Below are positions 6,214 to 16,588 of a DNA stretch of 20,173 nucleotides, piece by piece. Made by a program: the position numbers and the translations under genes. Below the pieces are notes generated by a model. The model was not told the origin of the DNA, ran no database searches, and saw only the letters and a list, made by a program, of their open reading frames with translations. The stretch is from positions 1-20,173 of IMG/VR virus record IMGVR_UViG_3300037189_005000; one strand, given 5' to 3'. Each line of letters opens with the position of its first letter. Positions within the stretch are counted from its first letter, which is position 1. The stretch is from a virus.

Positions 6214-6822
6214 ATGACAACCGACCCGCGATGGAAATCCCAGCTGGGACAGGACCGCTTCGTGTGGGAGACGCTCGACCGCAAGACCGGCGGGACGTTC
6301 TTCGACATCGGTGCAGGTCATCCCGATCGGATCAGCAACACCGTGGTACTCGAGCGCGGATTCGGCTGGCGCGGCCTGTTGTCGGACATCGAGTACGACA
6401 GGCAGCTGCGCGAGCAGCGCGCCAAGAACAACATCTACCGCGCCGATGCGACGGACATCGACTACGAGGCGCAATGGCTGCGGCTTGCGTCCGACGAGTT
6501 CCGATGGGTCGACTTCCTGTCGCTGGACCTCGAGCCGCCAGACCTGACGGCGCGCGTGTTGCTTCGGATGCCGCTTGACCGCATCCGCTTCCGCATCGCC
6601 TGCGTCGAGCATGACGCGTACCGCGACGGCGAGCGAGGCATCCTGCGCCGCGACATGATGCGGAGCTTTATGGAGTGGAGCGGCTACGTCCGCGTGGCCG
6701 ACATCGTGGTGAATATGCAGACCGAAGACGAGATGATCCAGGCGCATATCGAGGACTGGTGGATCCATCGGGAAAGCGGGCTTGTCGAGAAGGCGCGCGC
6801 GGTGCTTGGAGTCAACGCATGA
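6214..6822 (+). CDS. FkbM-like SAM-dependent methyltransferase
   Basis: The 202-residue protein looks like a compact class I methyltransferase of the FkbM type. SQLGQDRFVWE at residues 9-19 matches the 'sQ.gqD.fv...l' start of the family; TFFDIGAGHPDRISNT (28-43) is the SAM-binding motif I; GWRGLLSDIE (51-60) is the acidic motif II equivalent; RADATD (76-81) and VDFLSLDLEPPD (99-110) match later motifs, and a 'vEHD' follows at 131-134. FkbM-type enzymes mostly O-methylate sugars or small molecules. An AGGAG ribosome site precedes the ATG, and the stop overlaps the next gene (ATGA). Placement between fibre genes and a DNA methyltransferase is unusual; a target on a virion or host glycan is an inference. 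Confidence 0.75.
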   Translation: MTTDPRWKSQLGQDRFVWETLDRKTGGTFFDIGAGHPDRISNTVVLERGFGWRGLLSDIEYDRQLREQRAKNNIYRADATDIDYEAQWLRLASDEFRWVDFLSLDLEPPDLTARVLLRMPLDRIRFRIACVEHDAYRDGERGILRRDMMRSFMEWSGYVRVADIVVNMQTEDEMIQAHIEDWWIHRESGLVEKARAVLGVNA

Positions 6823-7940
6823 AGACAGAACGCGTACCCATCGGCTCGGTGCAGTTCGATCCCGCGAACGTCCGCAGGCACGGCGAGAAGAACCTTGACG
6901 CGATCAAGGCGAGCCTGTCGCGCTTCGGCCAGCAGAAGCCGATCGTGGTCGACGCGGACGGCATCGTTCGCGCCGGCAACGGCACGCTCATGGCTGCGAA
7001 GGCGCTGGGATGGCCAGAGGTGACGATCGTCCGAACTGCGCTCAAGGGCGCGGAGGCGACCGCCTACGCGATCGCGGACAACCGTACCGCGGAGCTTGCA
7101 GAGTGGGACGACGACGCGCTGGCGCAGACGCTTGCGGCGCTCCAGATCGAGGACGAGGAGCTCGCGAAGGTGACGGGCTTTGACGATGCCGACATCGACG
7201 CGATGCTCGCGCCAGACGAGGTGACGGAGGACGAGGTTCCAGAGCCTCCCGTCGATCCGATTACGAAGCCTGGCGACCTTTGGCTCCTCGGGGAACATCG
7301 CCTCCTCTGCGGAGACTCGACGAAGGCTCATGATGTCGCGCGGCTGATGCACAAGCAAACGGCAGATGCAACCATTTCCGATCCGCCATACGGTCTCGGC
7401 TATGAGTATGCAACCCATGACGACTCGGACAACAACGCGAACGCGAGCCTAGTTGCATCGGCGTTCGCCCTAGGATCGAGCTTCATCGTTTGGACGCCAG
7501 GCCAGCAGAACCTCGCGAGAGACATCAATCGTTTCGGAAAGTCCAAGGTGCTCATCTGGTTCAAGAAGTTTGCAGCGATGGGAAACGGACTCGGAGGCGC
7601 GTCCGTATGGGAGCCGATACTAGTTGTCGGGAAGCCGCCGAAACGAGAGCTGAAAACCGATGTGATCGAATGCATGACGGAGCGTCTAGAGGTCGACGGG
7701 AAGCCGCTTCGCAGCCTGCATACTTGTCCGAAACCCGTCGCTTTGTACGCGGGGCTCATCGAGTCTTTCACCGAGCTAGGACAACTGATCCATGAGCCGT
7801 TCTGCGGATCAGGAACGACGCTCATCGCTGCCGAGCAACTTGGTCGTAAGTGCTACGGGATGGAGATAAGTCCCGCCTACTGCGATGTCATCGTGAAGCG
7901 ATGGGAGACTCTGACGGGAAAGAAGGCCACCCGTGGCTAG
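6819..7940 (+). CDS. ParB-like domain fused to an N6-adenine/N4-cytosine DNA methyltransferase
   Basis: The 373-residue protein starts at an ATGA overlap. Residues 1-95 form a ParB/Srx-type domain (VPIGSVQFDPANVRRH, then IVRAGNGTLMAAKALGW at 49-65 and ADNRTAE at 87-93). After an acidic linker (130-147) comes the methyltransferase: LWLLGEHRLLCGDS at 154-167, catalytic motif IV DPPY at 188-191, HTCPKPVAL at 301-309 and SAM-binding FCGSGTT at 328-334. Motif IV before motif I marks the beta class, which contains N6-A and N4-C enzymes. No restriction nuclease adjoins it, so it is probably an orphan methylase acting on phage or host DNA, for example against restriction. ParB-methylase fusions are frequent in phages near terminase. 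The two halves differ in base composition. Confidence 0.88.
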   Translation: MKTERVPIGSVQFDPANVRRHGEKNLDAIKASLSRFGQQKPIVVDADGIVRAGNGTLMAAKALGWPEVTIVRTALKGAEATAYAIADNRTAELAEWDDDALAQTLAALQIEDEELAKVTGFDDADIDAMLAPDEVTEDEVPEPPVDPITKPGDLWLLGEHRLLCGDSTKAHDVARLMHKQTADATISDPPYGLGYEYATHDDSDNNANASLVASAFALGSSFIVWTPGQQNLARDINRFGKSKVLIWFKKFAAMGNGLGGASVWEPILVVGKPPKRELKTDVIECMTERLEVDGKPLRSLHTCPKPVALYAGLIESFTELGQLIHEPFCGSGTTLIAAEQLGRKCYGMEISPAYCDVIVKRWETLTGKKATRG

Positions 7941-8271: not shown

Positions 8272-9449
8272 GGATCAGGCTTCCCGCCATCGAGAGCGTG
8301 CTGCATGAGTCGCAGCGCGAGGTATACGGGAAGCTCGCGCGCTTCTCGGTTCTCGAGATCGGCCGGCGCTGGGGAAAGACCACGTTCGGCCGCGTGATCT
8401 CCACCTATGACGCGATCCACGGCAAGAAAGTCGGATGGTTTGCCCCGTCGTACAAGTACCTTGCGGAACCCGTCCGTGAGTTTGAGCGCGCGCTAGGGCC
8501 AGTCATCGCCAGGCACGACCGCATAGAGCATCGGATGGAGCTGCGTACGCGCGGCGTGGTCGACTTCTGGACGCTCGAGGATGTCGACGCGGGCCGATCG
8601 CGCGACTATGACCTGGTCGTCATCGACGAGGCGGGAATGGTCGGGCATCTCTTGGACTGCTGGCAGCAGTCGATCCGCGCGACCTTGACCGACCGCAAGG
8701 GCCGCGCGCTGTTCCTCGGCACGCCGAAGGGCAGCGGCGATTTCCATCGGCTCTTCTCCCAGGCAGAGTCGGACGCGTCGGGAGAGTTCCGCGCGTTCCG
8801 CATCGGATCGGCTGCGAACCCGCACCTTGACCCAGCGGAGATCGAAGCCGCGCGGCGGATGCTGCCGGCGCAGGTCTTCGCGCAGGAGTACGAAGGCATA
8901 CCCGCGGAAGACGGCGGGAACCCGTTCGGACTGTCAGCCATCGCGCAATGCGTCGCGCCTATGTCGTCCGATGCGCCTGAGGTCTGGGGCGTGGACCTTG
9001 CGAAGTCGAGCGACTACACCGTCGCCGTGGCGCTCGACGGCGCAGGGCGCGTCTGCAGGCTTGAGCGATGGCAAGCGCCGTGGACGGTCACGCGCGAGAA
9101 GCTGGCGCGGATGCTCGGGCAGCTGCCGGCGCAGATCGACTCGACTGGCGTAGGCGATCCCATCGTCGAGGATCTACGCAAGGTCTGCCGCCGCGCTGAG
9201 GGCTTCAAGTTCTCGAGCGCGACCAAACAGCAGCTCATGGAAGGCCTGCAGATCGCCATCCAGACGGCTGAGGTACGATTTCCCGAAGGCTGGCTCCGCG
9301 CTGAACTGGAGGCCTTTGGCTTCCGATACTCACCACGGGGCGCGGTGCAATACGAGGCAACGGTCGGCCACGACGACGGAGTGTGCGCGCTTGCCCTCGC
9401 GCTCCATGCTCGACGGCAGCGGCGGCCCCTCATCGTGAAGGTCATATGA
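8268..9449 (+). CDS. terL: Large terminase subunit (packaging ATPase/nuclease)
   Basis: From the GTG at 8268 (GTGA overlap with the small subunit) the product is 393 residues. The ATPase half has a Walker A variant GRRWGKTT at 32-39, Walker B DLVVIDEA at 115-122 with catalytic Glu121, and the coupling motif LFLGTPKG at 148-155. The RNase H-like nuclease half has three acidic positions: GVDLA (Asp243), IDSTGVGD (Asp291) and GHDDGV (Asp369/370). This is the normal motor of dsDNA tailed phages: it translocates DNA through the portal and cuts at headful or site. The size is at the compact end of the usual range. The frame is open upstream, but that segment reads against the small terminase and has the composition of an overlap, not a domain. 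Confidence 0.95.
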   Translation: MRIRLPAIESVLHESQREVYGKLARFSVLEIGRRWGKTTFGRVISTYDAIHGKKVGWFAPSYKYLAEPVREFERALGPVIARHDRIEHRMELRTRGVVDFWTLEDVDAGRSRDYDLVVIDEAGMVGHLLDCWQQSIRATLTDRKGRALFLGTPKGSGDFHRLFSQAESDASGEFRAFRIGSAANPHLDPAEIEAARRMLPAQVFAQEYEGIPAEDGGNPFGLSAIAQCVAPMSSDAPEVWGVDLAKSSDYTVAVALDGAGRVCRLERWQAPWTVTREKLARMLGQLPAQIDSTGVGDPIVEDLRKVCRRAEGFKFSSATKQQLMEGLQIAIQTAEVRFPEGWLRAELEAFGFRYSPRGAVQYEATVGHDDGVCALALALHARRQRRPLIVKVI

Positions 9450-12400
9450 GACGACTACTCGACCGAATCAAGCGCGCGTTCAACGAGGACAAGTTCCTGC
9501 AGACCTCGATGCAGATTCTGAGCGGCGACGAAGCCAAGCGCCAGCCGTTCAGCTACCACGCCGCCGTCGCGTCGTACCGATCATGGATCTACGCAGCCGC
9601 AAACCTAAACGCGGTCGCGGTCGCATCGCAGCCGATCCGCCTCTACGTCAGGAAGGGCGGCCGCAAGAGCCTTTGGCGCACGCGCGCGCCTGGCATGAGA
9701 GCGAAGGCCTATCTAGCCGGCGACCTATCCGCGCAGCCGTCGCGTACCGTGATGACCAAGGCCGCAGAGTACGGCGACGACTACGAGGTCGTCACCGAGA
9801 TGCACCCCGTCCTCGATGTACTGAGCAAGTTCAATCAGTACCAGAACGGCTTCGACGCGACCATCCTACGCATCCTGTATACGGAGCTCACGGGCAACGC
9901 GTACATTCATCCCGTCATCGACCGCCAGCTCGGTCGCCCTTCGTCGCTTTGGATCATGCCGTCGCAATGGGTCGAGGTCGTGCCGGGAAAGGTCGAGTTC
10001 GTCGACGGCTATCTCTATGGCGCGACCCGCGATCAGCGGCGTTTTTTCCCTGCCGACGAGGTGATTCACTTCAGGCGGCCGAACCCTGGCGACCTGTACT
10101 ACGGGCTCGGCAAGGCTGAGGCCGCATGGGGCGCGGCGATGCAGAACGAGGCCGTGCATGAGATGGACCTGTCGTTCTTCTCCAACAAGGCGCGTCCCGA
10201 CTACCTGCTGACGTTCAAGGGCGTTGCCGATCCAAACGAGATCGAGCGGCTCGAGGTCCAGATTGACGAGAAGCTGCGCGGCAAGAAGCGCACGGGCCGC
10301 TTCCTGACGATGTCGTCCGATGTCGACCTCAAGCCGATGGGCTTCCCGCCGAAAGACCTGGCAGGCCGCACGGAGATCATCGAGGAGATCGCCGCGGTAT
10401 TCGGCGTGCCTGTCTCGATGCTCAAGGCCAACGACCCGAACCTCGCGTCCGCGCAGGTCGGCTTCGCGTCGTGGCGGTCGAACACGATCCTGCCGCTCCT
10501 GCGGATGGACGAGGAGACGCTGAATCAGTCTCTGCTGCCGCTCTTCGGCATCGAGGACGACGCGTTCCTTGCGTACGACAATCCCGTTCTCGAGGATGAG
10601 CGCTTTGAGTTTGAGCGCGTCCGCGCCGCGGTATCCGCTGGCATGATGACGGTCAACGAGGCGCGCGAGCTGCAGGGGCTCGCCGCTAGCGATGACCCGA
10701 ACGCGGATTCCCTGCTGTTCAACAACCAGCCGCTCGGCGGTCCCGTCCCGCCGCCGCCGGCTGTCCCGTCCTTCTCCCCTGAGCCGCCGTCCGCGCCCGC
10801 CGGCCCCGCCGGGCCGGACGGTGGCGGAGAGGCCACGACACCCGTGGACGAGCCCGTCGCGGAGGTCGGCGTGAAGTCGTTGCAGAATGCGATGCACACG
10901 CTCGGCGCGATCGAAGAGAAGGCGAGCCCCGCCGACTGCGTCTCCGAGAAGATTCCGAAGCTTCTCGACGAGGGCTACCCGCGCGACCAGGCGATCGCCA
11001 TTGCGATTTCCATGTGCGATGCGGGATCGAAGGCGGTGTCCGACATCGACACGAAGCCGCCCGAGACGGTGGCCCGCAACGCGCAGCGCGCGCTCGAGGT
11101 CCGAAGCGAGAAGCCAGACAGCCAGCGCGGCATGACCGAAGTCGGCATCGCGCGCGCGCGCGACCTGGCGAACCGTGCGAATCTGTCGGAGGAGACGATT
11201 CGTCGCATGGCCGCGTACTTTGAGCGGCACGAAGTCGACAAGCAAGGCGAGACATGGGACGAGCAGGGCAAGGGCTGGCAGGCATGGTACGGCTGGGGCG
11301 GCGACGAGGGCTGGGCATGGGCTCGCCGCAAGGTCGAGGAGTTCGACCGCGCGCGCGGCGTGAAGTCTGGCTGCGGCTGCGACCGTGCCAAGGACTTTGC
11401 CGCGGACCTCGACGCGTGCCTCTGCGACGAGGTCGAGACGAAGAACTGCGGCACGGGCGCAGAGGGATTTGAGGACGGCAACACCTGCGGCGGCGGTAGT
11501 GGCGGCGGCGGTGCATCGTCTGGAGGAGACGGAGCATCGAAGCCAGCGTCAGACAAGCCGAAGAAGCCGTCGAGCCGCAAGCCGAAGCAGCCCAAGGCAG
11601 AGGCCGGCAAGCCTCCCGCGGCGGGACTCAAGGAACCGAAGAAGCACGACGTTGCCCTGCCGGTCAATCCCCGCAAGATGAGCATCGACCAGTTTGACGC
11701 TGGTCTGCGCGCGCTCGGATACACCGAGGTCGGAAAGCGCACCGAGAACCCGTACAGCCGCACCGATCGCCGCACCTACTACACGGTGCGCGATGCGGAC
11801 GGCAACACGGCAGAAGTCGAGATGAACGAACTTCTCGGCACGATGTACGCGAACTCGAGCGATCCGAAGCTGCAGGCGGTCACGCCGAAGCCGCGGTCCA
11901 AGTCTGTGTGCGGCTGCGGCTGCGAGTCGGGCGCGTCCATCTCGCAGAAGGCGCTCTGGTCTATGGACGGCGAGCAGCTGCCCGAGATCCACACGAAGGC
12001 GCGCGCGAAGAAGCCCGATGCCGGCGACGAGTTCGAGGAGATCACGGAAGACGAGCGCGCCATCGGCAACGCAGTCGACCGCGTCCTGCAGCGCCAGATT
12101 TCGGCGGTCCTCAAGGAACTCAACGCGTCGACAGCGCCGAGCGCCGAACTGACGCTCAAGGTCGAGTCGCTGCTGAAGAGCGCGAGATGGGACCGCGAGC
12201 TGGTGGCGGCGCTTCGGCCCTACCTGCAGTCGAGCCTCAAGACGGGCATCTCGCTCGGAACGGACACCATCAAGAACTTGGCGACGGCGTTGCCAGACTT
12301 CACGCCAGAGACGGCGAACCTCGACGCGTACGTCGAGTCGGAATCGGTGCGCCTTGCCCGCAACAGCGCGCGCTCGGTCAACCAGTACACCTCCGTGCGC

Positions 12401-12898
12401 GTGTCCAAGATTCTGGGGGACGGCATCCAGAGCGGCGAGACTATCCCCGAACTCGCCACGCGCGTGCAGGAGTGGGCGGGCGAGAAGGGCGACGCAGCGC
12501 GGCAGACGCGCTCAAGGGCTATCACCATCGCCCGCACCGAGGCGCAGCGCGCTACCCGCAAGGCTGAGAGCGAGGCGTGGAAGTCGACGGGGCTGGTGGA
12601 GGGCAAGAAATGGCTCCTCGCGCCTGACCCCTGCGAGTTCTGCCAGGCCGCGTCCGAGCAGTTCGGGCAGAAGTCGGTCGGCATCAACGAGCCGTTCTAC
12701 AAGCAGGGCGACACGCTCACGGGCGCGGACGGCGGGGAGCTGGCGCTTGACTACGAGGCGGTCGACGGGCCGCCGCTGCACCCGAACTGCCGCTGTTCGA
12801 TGCAGCCGGTCCTCGTCGACGACTACGAACAGATCATCAAGGACATGGAAGCGGACGCGGCGAAGATGACGGGTCCGTACACGGAGCCAACGGAATGA
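9446..12898 (+). CDS. Portal protein fused to MuF-like head morphogenesis protein, with inserted domains
   Basis: The 1150-residue protein starts ATGA-overlapped with terL. Residues 1-430 are an HK97-type portal (SYRSWIYAAANLNAVAVA near 43-60, ELTGNAYIHPVI at 147-158, ADEVIHFRRPNP at 203-214, TEIIEEIAAVFGVPVSML at 309-326). A Pro/Gly linker (431-465) follows. Then come a small domain with DCVSEKIPKLLDEGYPRDQA (497-516); a domain with MTEVGIARARDLANR, AAYFERHEVDKQG and WYGWGGDEGW (563-623) seen in other phage head proteins but of unknown function; Cys-rich and Gly/Lys-rich linkers (640-735); an unrecognised domain (737-812); a second CGCGC knot (822-826); and a MuF-type end (866-1125) with ARTEAQR (1029-1035), CEFC (1063-1066) and DGPPLHPNCRC (1107-1117). 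The portal forms the packaging dodecamer; MuF proteins are carried in the head. Portal and MuF are usually separate neighbouring genes. Confidence 0.9.
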   Translation: MRRLLDRIKRAFNEDKFLQTSMQILSGDEAKRQPFSYHAAVASYRSWIYAAANLNAVAVASQPIRLYVRKGGRKSLWRTRAPGMRAKAYLAGDLSAQPSRTVMTKAAEYGDDYEVVTEMHPVLDVLSKFNQYQNGFDATILRILYTELTGNAYIHPVIDRQLGRPSSLWIMPSQWVEVVPGKVEFVDGYLYGATRDQRRFFPADEVIHFRRPNPGDLYYGLGKAEAAWGAAMQNEAVHEMDLSFFSNKARPDYLLTFKGVADPNEIERLEVQIDEKLRGKKRTGRFLTMSSDVDLKPMGFPPKDLAGRTEIIEEIAAVFGVPVSMLKANDPNLASAQVGFASWRSNTILPLLRMDEETLNQSLLPLFGIEDDAFLAYDNPVLEDERFEFERVRAAVSAGMMTVNEARELQGLAASDDPNADSLLFNNQPLGGPVPPPPAVPSFSPEPPSAPAGPAGPDGGGEATTPVDEPVAEVGVKSLQNAMHTLGAIEEKASPADCVSEKIPKLLDEGYPRDQAIAIAISMCDAGSKAVSDIDTKPPETVARNAQRALEVRSEKPDSQRGMTEVGIARARDLANRANLSEETIRRMAAYFERHEVDKQGETWDEQGKGWQAWYGWGGDEGWAWARRKVEEFDRARGVKSGCGCDRAKDFAADLDACLCDEVETKNCGTGAEGFEDGNTCGGGSGGGGASSGGDGASKPASDKPKKPSSRKPKQPKAEAGKPPAAGLKEPKKHDVALPVNPRKMSIDQFDAGLRALGYTEVGKRTENPYSRTDRRTYYTVRDADGNTAEVEMNELLGTMYANSSDPKLQAVTPKPRSKSVCGCGCESGASISQKALWSMDGEQLPEIHTKARAKKPDAGDEFEEITEDERAIGNAVDRVLQRQISAVLKELNASTAPSAELTLKVESLLKSARWDRELVAALRPYLQSSLKTGISLGTDTIKNLATALPDFTPETANLDAYVESESVRLARNSARSVNQYTSVRVSKILGDGIQSGETIPELATRVQEWAGEKGDAARQTRSRAITIARTEAQRATRKAESEAWKSTGLVEGKKWLLAPDPCEFCQAASEQFGQKSVGINEPFYKQGDTLTGADGGELALDYEAVDGPPLHPNCRCSMQPVLVDDYEQIIKDMEADAAKMTGPYTEPTE

Positions 12899-13569
12899 CC
12901 ACGAAGACCAAGGCGCTCGCCGCGGACATCAGCTCGACGGCAAAGGGCTTCACCGCCATCATCACGGCTGAGACGATCGACCGCGACGGCGAGGTGCTGA
13001 TCCCTGGCGGCATGAACTCCGCGACGTTCGAGACAAACCCTGTCCTCTTCTGGAACCACGACTACGAGAAGCCGGTCGGTCGCGCGACCTCGATCAAGCG
13101 GCGAGAGAAAGACATCGTGGCCGATTTCATCTTCGCCAAGCGACCTGACGGCTACTCGGGCGAGTTCTTTCCCGAGGTCGCCGCGGCGCTCGTCGGGCAG
13201 GGAATCGTCAAGGGCGTTTCGGTCGGCTACACCTCAGAGCCAGGCGGCACGCGCCGCGCCAGCGAGGTCGACCGCAAGAAGTACGGCGACGGGGTCCACA
13301 CGGTCTACAGCCGTTGGAAGCTGCTCGAGATCAGCCTTGCGCCGCTGCAGGCGAATCCCGAAGCGCTCATCACCGCGGTAAAGAAGGGCATCGTCAGCCC
13401 CGTCGCGGCAAAGCGGTTTTTCGGCATCGAGCCGCCGCGCCGCGTGTCGATCGTTGTCCCGATGTCGGTAAAGCGCGCGGACTCATCCGCCGCGGCCGCC
13501 AAGCCGATTGACGCAGAAGCCATCATCGCGCGCGAGATCGCTCGAGCGCGTGGACGGCTTTGGTCGTGA
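12895..13569 (+). CDS. HK97-family prohead protease
   Basis: The 224-residue protein begins in an ATGA overlap with the portal-MuF gene. It shows the catalytic elements of the HK97 gp4 family: FWNHDYEKPVGRA with His55, VKGVSVGY with Ser109, and WKLLEISLAPLQANPEA with Glu145. The N-terminal strand (GFTAIITAETIDRDGEVL) and the 'l..gg......np..l.nHd' context are also typical. The C-terminal 50 residues are basic and Ala-rich and may be self-cleaved. The protease assembles inside the prohead and removes the scaffold region of the major capsid protein and often other internal proteins. The next gene is the capsid protein with a long N-terminal region to be removed. Confidence 0.93.
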   Translation: MTTKTKALAADISSTAKGFTAIITAETIDRDGEVLIPGGMNSATFETNPVLFWNHDYEKPVGRATSIKRREKDIVADFIFAKRPDGYSGEFFPEVAAALVGQGIVKGVSVGYTSEPGGTRRASEVDRKKYGDGVHTVYSRWKLLEISLAPLQANPEALITAVKKGIVSPVAAKRFFGIEPPRRVSIVVPMSVKRADSSAAAAKPIDAEAIIAREIARARGRLWS

Positions 13570-15526: not shown

Positions 15527-15532
15527 ACAGCC

Positions 15533-16588
15533 ATGAACTACGAGAGTGGATTGCCAGAGCGCCGCGACCTCGGCATGACGGTGGCCGAGATGACTACCGA
15601 GGAGGCCGTCGAGTTGCTCCGCAAGCTTGCATCGGAGACGGACGACGGCGGCGAAGTTGTCATTACCGTGCCGGACTTCGACCGCGCCGTCGAACTCTAC
15701 AGAGCGGGATCGCCTGGCGCGGAGAAAGCCTGCGTCGACGGCGGCCGCTTCAAGTCGATCTGGAACCGTGCGAAGCTGCTGCGTCTGCTTGACGCGGCTG
15801 GCTTCTGCGCCGCCGGTCCCGCGTCGGGAACGTCTTGGGAGAAGGACGGCACGATCTCGATCGTCGCGCGCAAATACTGGCGTATGCAGCCGCCGAAGCC
15901 GCTCGACCAAATCCTCGCCATCATGTCGCTGCCGCGCGTTGCGTGGACGACGACGATGGGCTGCCTGCACGAATCCTGCAGCAAGCTGGGCATCGACGCG
16001 GTTCGGTCCACGGGCGTGTTCTGGGGCCAATGCCTCGAGCGGATGCTTGAGCAGACCGCGCGCGACGGCCACAAGTACGCGCTGACCGTCGACTACGACA
16101 GCATCTTCGACGCGAACGACATCGTGCGTCTCTGGCAGATCATGGAGTCGAATCCCGACATCGACGTACTCTGCCCGTTGCAGATCCAGCGCGACAAGCC
16201 GAATAGCCTCTTCTGCATCATGGGCGCGGACGGCAAGTTGCTCGACGCGTTGTCGGAAGAGCGGCTGCTTTGCGAGGCCATCGACATCTATAGCGGTCAT
16301 TTCGGGCTGACGCTGATCCGATGCAGCGCGCTCGAGGGAATCAAGCGGCCGCTCTTCTGGGGTCAGCCCGACGCGGACGGCAGCTGGGGCAAGGGCCGCA
16401 CGGACGACGACATCTTCTTCTGGAACCGTCTGCGCGAGGCTGGTCGGCGCGTCTGCCTTACGCCGCGCGTCAGGATCGGACACCTCCAGCTCGTCGTCTC
16501 ATGGCCTGACGAGTCGTTCGAGGCAATGCATCAGTACCACCCCGCGTACATCGACGAGGGGAGGCCGAAATGCACGACGACCTTCTGA
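15533..16588 (+). CDS. Glycosyltransferase-like protein with a methyltransferase-like N-terminal remnant
   Basis: The 351-residue protein has two parts. Residues 1-115 (EAVELLRKLASETDDGGEVV, then ITVPDFDRAVELY, RFKSIWNRAKLLRLLDAAGF) resemble the C-terminal half of a class I methyltransferase ('l...GG.v.i.vPdf', then 'h.s.wd...L..lL..aGF') but lack a glycine-rich SAM motif. Residues 120-351 resemble a GT-A glycosyltransferase: ALTVDYDSIFDANDIVRLW at 183-201 with a DxD-type DYDS, DIDVLCPLQIQRDKPN at 209-224, GHFGLTLIRCSALEGIKRP at 255-273, and RTDDDIFFWNRLREAGRRV at 289-307 followed by RIGH at 314-317. It is preceded by AGGAG and overlaps the next gene by 19 nt. The likely activity is sugar transfer, target unknown; a virion protein is possible given the location among head genes. 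Confidence 0.75.
   Translation: MNYESGLPERRDLGMTVAEMTTEEAVELLRKLASETDDGGEVVITVPDFDRAVELYRAGSPGAEKACVDGGRFKSIWNRAKLLRLLDAAGFCAAGPASGTSWEKDGTISIVARKYWRMQPPKPLDQILAIMSLPRVAWTTTMGCLHESCSKLGIDAVRSTGVFWGQCLERMLEQTARDGHKYALTVDYDSIFDANDIVRLWQIMESNPDIDVLCPLQIQRDKPNSLFCIMGADGKLLDALSEERLLCEAIDIYSGHFGLTLIRCSALEGIKRPLFWGQPDADGSWGKGRTDDDIFFWNRLREAGRRVCLTPRVRIGHLQLVVSWPDESFEAMHQYHPAYIDEGRPKCTTTF

What the first reader, a model, noticed from the sequence alone, without database searches (positions are those of the whole stretch)
9446..12898. One 1150-residue polypeptide carries portal, several extra domains and MuF
Portal and MuF-like proteins are normally two neighbouring genes. Here the frame is uninterrupted from a complete HK97-type portal (1-430) through at least three extra segments to a MuF-type C-terminus with ART-E, CEFC and PPLHPNCRC. 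If all copies are full length, twelve portal subunits would each carry a roughly 700-residue tail, which is hard to fit without proteolysis. The adjacent prohead protease could release the MuF part inside the shell, making this a structural polyprotein. Portal-MuF fusions are known in phages; the number and kind of inserted domains here look unusual. What is seen: the continuous frame and the motifs. What is inferred: processing.
Basis: partly seen in the sequence, partly recalled or inferred. Interest (0 to 1): 0.75.

Follow-up and report, generated by a model that had tools for sequence, protein, structure and literature searches.

The report
Portal–MuF polypeptide with swappable cargo cassettes
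One phage gene joins the DNA-entry ring protein to other head proteins in a single chain, and near-identical phages swap whole modules in and out of its middle (in relatives these include toxin-like enzymes), often marked by the same short cysteine-glycine peptide, which may be how many uncultured phages load proteins into their heads.

Summary
The continuous 1150-aa frame is real: HK97-type portal (1-415), helical hairpin (496-524), W-rich domain (530-640), motif CGTGAEGFEDGNTC (668-681) in a disordered linker, small alpha/beta domain MID (714-815), MuF (859-1150). It is no sequencing error: 61 of 72 non-redundant relatives keep portal and MuF fused, and an isolate (Streptomyces phage Chymera) also has a portal-MuF gene. 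The new part is the middle. Phages with 98-99% identical portal, W and MuF parts differ by whole in-frame modules; the window's nearest relatives lack exactly the motif+MID cassette. The motif CGxGxGGFxxGNxC recurs before many head-encoded cargo domains (ADP-ribosyltransferases, topoisomerase IB, GNAT) in HK97- and lambda-type portal ORFs, in protease ORFs, or 5-30 residues after the start of stand-alone ORFs. Its synonymous codons vary, and it was absent from 289 bacterial genomes. With cargo other than MID, MuF is a separate gene in 11 of 13 cases, otherwise in 0 of 59. Packing needs no proteolysis: twelve tails are 0.95 MDa, 1-2% of a T=7 interior. Best reading: a portal-anchored carrier of exchangeable head cargo; protease processing is untested.

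The parts
9446..12898 (+). whole ORF, 1150 aa, portal-to-MuF chain
9446..10690 (+). HK97-type portal, aa 1-415
   Evidence: Pfam PF04860 aa 109-411 E=3e-45; GTA portal 6TBA E=1e-22
10931..11017 (+). helical hairpin with CVSEKIPKLLDEGY...AIAISMC, aa 496-524
   Evidence: PHROG 2423 E=6e-5; two helices in the model
11033..11365 (+). W-rich helical domain, aa 530-640, present in nearly all relatives
   Evidence: PHROG 2859 E=3.5e-17; model; census
11363..11380 (+). CGC repeat 1 (KSGCGC, aa 640-645), left edge of the exchange site
11447..11488 (+). motif CGTGAEGFEDGNTC, aa 668-681, in a disordered linker
11585..11890 (+). MID, alpha-beta3-alpha cargo domain of unknown function, aa 714-815
   Evidence: model pLDDT 89.8; homologues behind the motif in portal, MuF and protease ORFs
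11900..11923 (+). CGC repeat 2 (KSVCGCGC, aa 819-826), right edge of the exchange site
   Evidence: L005, L006 and L018 lack the 179 residues between the repeats
12020..12895 (+). MuF-type minor head module, aa 859-1150
12895..13569 (+). S78-type prohead protease, the neighbour proposed as the processing enzyme
   Evidence: Pfam PF04586 E=1.3e-5, PHROG 80

Best explanation
The gene encodes a portal protein whose C-terminal tail is a carrier for head cargo. Constant parts are the portal, a helical hairpin, a W-rich domain and MuF. Between W and MuF (sometimes between the hairpin and W) lies an exchange site into which modules are inserted in frame. A typical cassette is the motif CGxGxGGFxxGNxC, a low-complexity linker and a cargo domain. 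In the window the cargo is MID (function unknown); in relatives it is often an ADP-ribosyltransferase or another effector-like enzyme. Shown: the architecture, the exchange, the recurrence of the motif, and the link between cargo type and gene splitting. Inferred: by analogy with other portals the tail faces the capsid interior, so up to twelve copies place cargo and MuF near the DNA exit, and the cargo enters the host with the DNA. The motif is most likely a head-targeting or release signal. Cleavage by the prohead protease is possible but not required.
For: Pairs with at least 97% identical portals but different modules keep W (mean 98.9%) and MuF (median 98.8%) as similar as pairs with equal modules. 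The window's relatives L005, L006 and L018 lack exactly 179 aa between the CGC repeats. Cargo behind the motif includes ADPrib_exo_Tox, ART-PolyVal, Topoisom_I and GNAT, and two cargo domains match the RNA polymerase ADP-ribosylase PHROG. 36 motifs in 21 virus records all lie in one to three neighbouring ORFs. The motif starts stand-alone ORFs. Synonymous codons vary, so selection is on the peptide. Splitting goes with non-MID cargo: 11 of 13 versus 0 of 59; seven independent pairs, p=0.016.
Against: No virion data. The position of the tail inside the capsid is by analogy. MID has no known function or fold match, so the window's own cargo is not shown to be an effector; it might be structural. 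26 of 61 fused relatives carry neither cassette, so cargo is dispensable. All exchange evidence comes from metagenome contigs, where chimeric assembly is possible in single cases.
Confidence: 0.62

Rival explanations
1. Structural polyprotein: the adjacent S78 prohead protease cuts the chain in the disordered linkers (at the motif or the CGC repeats), releasing MID and MuF inside the shell while the portal domain stays in the ring.
For: A protease gene follows directly; the linkers 640-713 and 819-860 are predicted disordered; the same modules are separate proteins in L095; T4 gp21 and P1 process head cargo (PMC9026906; PMC5512222).
Against: Only circumstantial. Motif-bearing records L105, L142, L094 and L160 (35-39 kb) show no S78, S49 or ClpP match, so the motif is not tied to S78; the protease is also present in relatives that lack the motif. 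No space argument remains.
Confidence: 0.25
2. The inserts are only neutral linker growth: domains drift in and out of a permissive linker without a role in delivery, and the motif is a structural staple.
For: Cassette-free relatives are common (26 of 72); MID lacks a known function.
Against: The peptide motif is strictly kept across unrelated portal families and in stand-alone ORFs near the start codon; cargo is enriched for enzymes known from injected phage proteins.
Confidence: 0.1
3. MuF is a separate protein hidden by a sequencing error or made from an internal start.
For: An internal ATG at aa 840 has AGAAGG about 11 nt upstream.
Against: Independent assemblies keep the frame; 61 of 72 relatives are fused; the Met is not conserved; the isolate Streptomyces phage Chymera has one 670-aa gene annotated portal whose C-terminus matches MuF.
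Confidence: 0.03

Closest known systems
Portal-MuF fusion proteins (e.g. Streptomyces phage Chymera gp4, 670 aa)
   Same: Portal and MuF in one gene, same order terL - portal-MuF - protease - MCP
   Different: The window chain is nearly twice as long, with a hairpin, a W domain and an exchange site with a motif cassette
Polyvalent proteins of phages (Iyer et al. 2017, PMC5512222)
   Same: Effector domains (ART, GNAT, ParB-like, peptidase) fused to virion proteins, thought to be injected
   Different: That paper lists fusions but a text search finds no mention of cysteines or linkers; here there is a recurrent peptide motif and recent cassette exchange at one site
MuF polymorphic toxins (Jamet et al. 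2017, PMC5576092)
   Same: MuF head protein with variable toxin-like domains including ADP-ribosyltransferases
   Different: Their toxins are C-terminal to MuF and in temperate phages; here cargo lies before MuF and 11 records had no integrase match
T4 capsid targeting sequence and Alt (PMC9026906)
   Same: A short peptide shared by diverse head cargo, near the N-terminus in stand-alone proteins; cargo includes an ADP-ribosyltransferase
   Different: Unrelated sequence; the motif here also sits inside long fusions; targeting and cleavage were not tested

Membership tests
Portal-MuF fusion protein | Portal domain and MuF domain in one open frame | tested here: met
Portal-MuF fusion protein | Fusion conserved in relatives | tested here: met
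   61 of 72 non-redundant relatives
Polyvalent protein | Two or more effector-type domains in one chain | tested here: inconclusive
   Window: only MID, function unknown. Met in distant motif-bearing relatives such as L159
MuF polymorphic toxin | Toxin domain C-terminal to MuF | tested here: not met
   The chain ends soon after MuF
Structural polyprotein cut by the prohead protease | Cleavage between modules in the virion | not testable with these tools
   needs mass spectrometry
T4-type capsid targeting sequence | Short peptide at the N-terminus of several cargo proteins of one phage | tested here: inconclusive
   Motif 5-30 residues from a start codon in stand-alone ORFs, two such ORFs only in some phages; in the window it is internal
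T4-type capsid targeting sequence | Necessary and sufficient for packaging | not testable with these tools
   needs a packaging experiment

The most novel reading that the evidence does not exclude
CGxGxGGFxxGNxC is an undescribed head-cargo signal (targeting and/or release) used by many uncultured tailed phages with unrelated portals, letting them plug interchangeable effectors into portal, protease or MuF chains, or carry them as stand-alone tagged proteins.
Probability: 0.38. Interest if true: 0.82.

Novelty: new variant of a known kind. Interest (0 to 1): 0.64.

Why it matters
How most tailed phages choose which proteins enter the head and then the host is unknown outside a few models such as T4. 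A short, recognisable peptide that marks head cargo across unrelated portal families would make injected effectors findable by sequence, and the natural with/without-cassette pairs of near-identical phages are ready-made tests of what a cargo does.

Tried and rejected
(1) Sequencing error: rejected. (2) Space problem: rejected by volume. (3) A DNA-level recombination signal as the reason for motif conservation: rejected, since synonymous codons vary. (4) Motif as a mere hinge between domains: unlikely, as it also occurs next to start codons. (5) Motif common in bacteria: not found in 289 genomes of the class of the Rhodobacteraceae MAG, nor in the four MAG genomes behind loci L083-L086. (6) Fold searches of aa 470-1150 and of MID gave nothing significant. 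(7) tblastn of a 35-aa motif query against isolate phages gave no match, but the low-complexity filter probably masks it, so this is not evidence of absence; the 240-aa linker query also found none, with the same caveat. (8) No paper in the library holds the motif letters that I searched for. (9) A separate internal start for MuF: not conserved. (10) A scan with the split MuF ORF of L077 returned only its own close relatives.

Full report
Observation. The window is a 20,173-base IMG/VR virus record. The + strand frame 9446-12898 is open for 1150 codons. It begins with an ATG that overlaps the terL stop (ATGA), and its own stop overlaps the ATG of an S78-type prohead protease; an HK97-type major capsid gene follows. 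Pfam finds Phage_portal at 109-411 and Phage_Mu_F at 987-1119, the latter a hair under its cut-off but supported by PHROG 2468 at E=1e-22. An AlphaFold model of residues 470-1150, with 28 aligned sequences, shows folded islands at 496-524, 530-636, 714-810 and 859-1142, with disordered linkers at about 640-713 and 819-860.

Not an error. Contigs L003 and L004 from other metagenomes carry the same full-length frame at 98-99% identity. Of 72 non-redundant relatives in which both portal and MuF could be located, 61 are fused. The only internal Met near the start of the MuF module (840) is absent in relatives such as L008 and L019. A single 670-aa gene of Streptomyces phage Chymera, annotated as portal, ends in a MuF match and sits in the same gene order, so portal-MuF fusion as such is known. 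PMC5512222 also describes fusions of effector domains to MuF and portal domains.

Space. Residues 416-1150 weigh 78.8 kDa; twelve copies are 0.95 MDa or about 1,140 nm3, between 1.1 and 1.6% of a sphere of 26-29 nm radius. The radius for a T=7 head is from general knowledge. Proteolysis is not needed to make room.

The exchange site. In L005, L006 and L018 the portal, W and MuF parts are 97-99% identical to the window but the chain is 971 aa: 179 residues between two KSxCGC repeats are missing. In the window the repeats share the 11-nt stretch TGCGGCTGCGA (read). A census over the family shows fused chains with no cassette (26), motif+MID (18), a module that contains a DUF5824 match (10), MID plus that module (5) or motif+other cargo (2), and split forms (11). 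Pairs with portal identity of 97% or more but different architecture (147) have mean portal identity 98.1%, W 98.9% and median MuF 98.8%, the same as 35 pairs with equal architecture (98.2, 98.7, 98.7). On a portal tree at least 36 architecture changes are needed for 72 rows. That number is a property of this sample, which kept near-identical rows only when they differed in architecture, and weakly supported branches may inflate it; the existence of many recent exchanges does not depend on it.

The motif. The inserted cassette holds a peptide of the form CGxGxGGFxxGNxC (window CGTGAEGFEDGNTC, aa 668-681). A scan of IMG/VR with it confirmed 159 places. It lies in portal ORFs of the HK97 family (PF04860) and of the lambda family (PF05136: L092, L098, L108), in S78 protease ORFs followed by a MID homologue (L111, L121), in a MuF ORF (L135), up to three times in one ORF (L159, 1838 aa) and six times in three neighbouring ORFs (L156). 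In stand-alone ORFs an in-frame start codon lies 5-30 residues before it (L077-L079, L093, L095, L136, L153/L160, L157). In 21 whole virus records of 9-93 kb all 36 matches lie in one to three neighbouring ORFs. No match was found in 289 genomes of the class of the Rhodobacteraceae MAG, while the same query matched in every virus record tested (those were chosen because they carry it). All conserved positions use several synonymous codons. Each half of the motif predicts the other in 89 of 89 and 84 of 85 distinct cases; the confirmation step of the scan favoured complete motifs, but copies reached through the portal search and secondary copies in the same ORFs are free of that bias and also complete. 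A variant CGR[DEQ]xxG+FxxGNxC occurs in L144, L150, L154, L155 and L161.

Cargo. Domains that follow the motif include ADPrib_exo_Tox (L077, L159), ART-PolyVal (L159; weak in L137), Topoisom_I (L101), GNAT acetyltransferase (L159) and weak metallopeptidase matches (L156). Two cargo domains weakly match the PHROG of the RNA polymerase ADP-ribosylase, the T4 Alt type (L095, L077; E about 5e-4 and 1e-3). In the window the cargo is MID, an alpha-beta3-alpha domain (pLDDT 89.8) without a significant fold or profile match. MID also follows the motif in L076 (between portal and W), in the split MuF ORF of L077 and in the protease ORFs L111/L121, so it travels with the motif.

Fusion versus splitting. 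Chains with cargo other than MID are split before MuF in 11 of 13 cases; those without such cargo are never split (0 of 59). Fisher's p is 2.6e-11 without correction for relatedness; on seven independent pairs of the portal tree the association goes the same way in 6.6 on average, never the other way, median p=0.016. In L095 portal-W, motif-ART, a second motif-cargo and MuF are four separate ORFs, with other genes in between. One reading is that an enzyme cargo needs a free C-terminus or release; that is inference.

Mechanism. Shown: modular chain, recurrent motif, recent exchange, cargo classes, link with splitting. From established knowledge: C-termini of such portals face the capsid interior (not tested here); T4 packages and injects the ART Alt and targets head proteins with a short N-terminal peptide that gp21 removes (PMC9026906); phage ARTs are often fused to or encoded beside head proteins (PMC9503650). 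Inferred: the tail holds cargo inside the capsid near the exit, and the motif targets or releases it. Processing by the S78 protease is one option. Against it as the general function of the motif, four motif-bearing records of 35-39 kb (L105, L142, L094, L160) show no S78, S49 or ClpP match, although absence of a match is weak evidence and L160 has a weak head-protease PHROG hit.

Lifestyle. No integrase was found in 11 family virus records of 21-35 kb, while the control genomes all gave matches; the records may be fragments. The one host clue is L083, a syntenic relative in a Rhodobacteraceae MAG contig.

Verdict. A real, well-conserved fusion; fusion as such is not new, while the exchange site and the motif appear to be. 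New variant of a known kind; interest 0.64.

Noticed in passing
L101:3249-5912: A portal ORF carries, behind the motif, a complete type IB topoisomerase core (PF01028, E=9e-28).
   Followed up: partly
L157:8036-9103: A 356-aa ORF between the motif-bearing ORFs and MuF has EF-hand/dockerin repeats (E=8e-12).
   Followed up: no
L114:5632-8253: An 874-aa ORF joins a W-type domain, head protease and major capsid protein (PHROGs 2859, 133, 4523).
   Followed up: no
L161:1636-3864: A W-type domain also starts an ORF with a head maturation protease match (PHROGs 2859, 9644, 80), so the W domain is shared by portal and protease chains.
   Followed up: no
L023:3987-5276: The split MuF ORF starts with a small Cys-rich domain (CAHCIHRTDRTCRAFPNGIP) absent from fused forms; might go with the ART-like cargo before it.
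   Followed up: no
window 15530-16588; L105, L142 and L160 after the MCP: A gene with weak glycosyltransferase matches lies soon after the capsid genes in the window; ORFs with a similar-looking start lie after the MCP in several motif-bearing phages.
   Followed up: no
L153/L160 stand-alone motif ORFs, L116, L137: Some cargo behind the motif is a predicted coiled coil starting RDRIEGT..EV rather than an enzyme.
   Followed up: no
window 6214-7940: A 202-aa ORF without a family match, then an N6/N4 DNA methylase (E=1.5e-19) with a weak ParB-like N-terminus, just upstream of the terminase genes.
   Followed up: no
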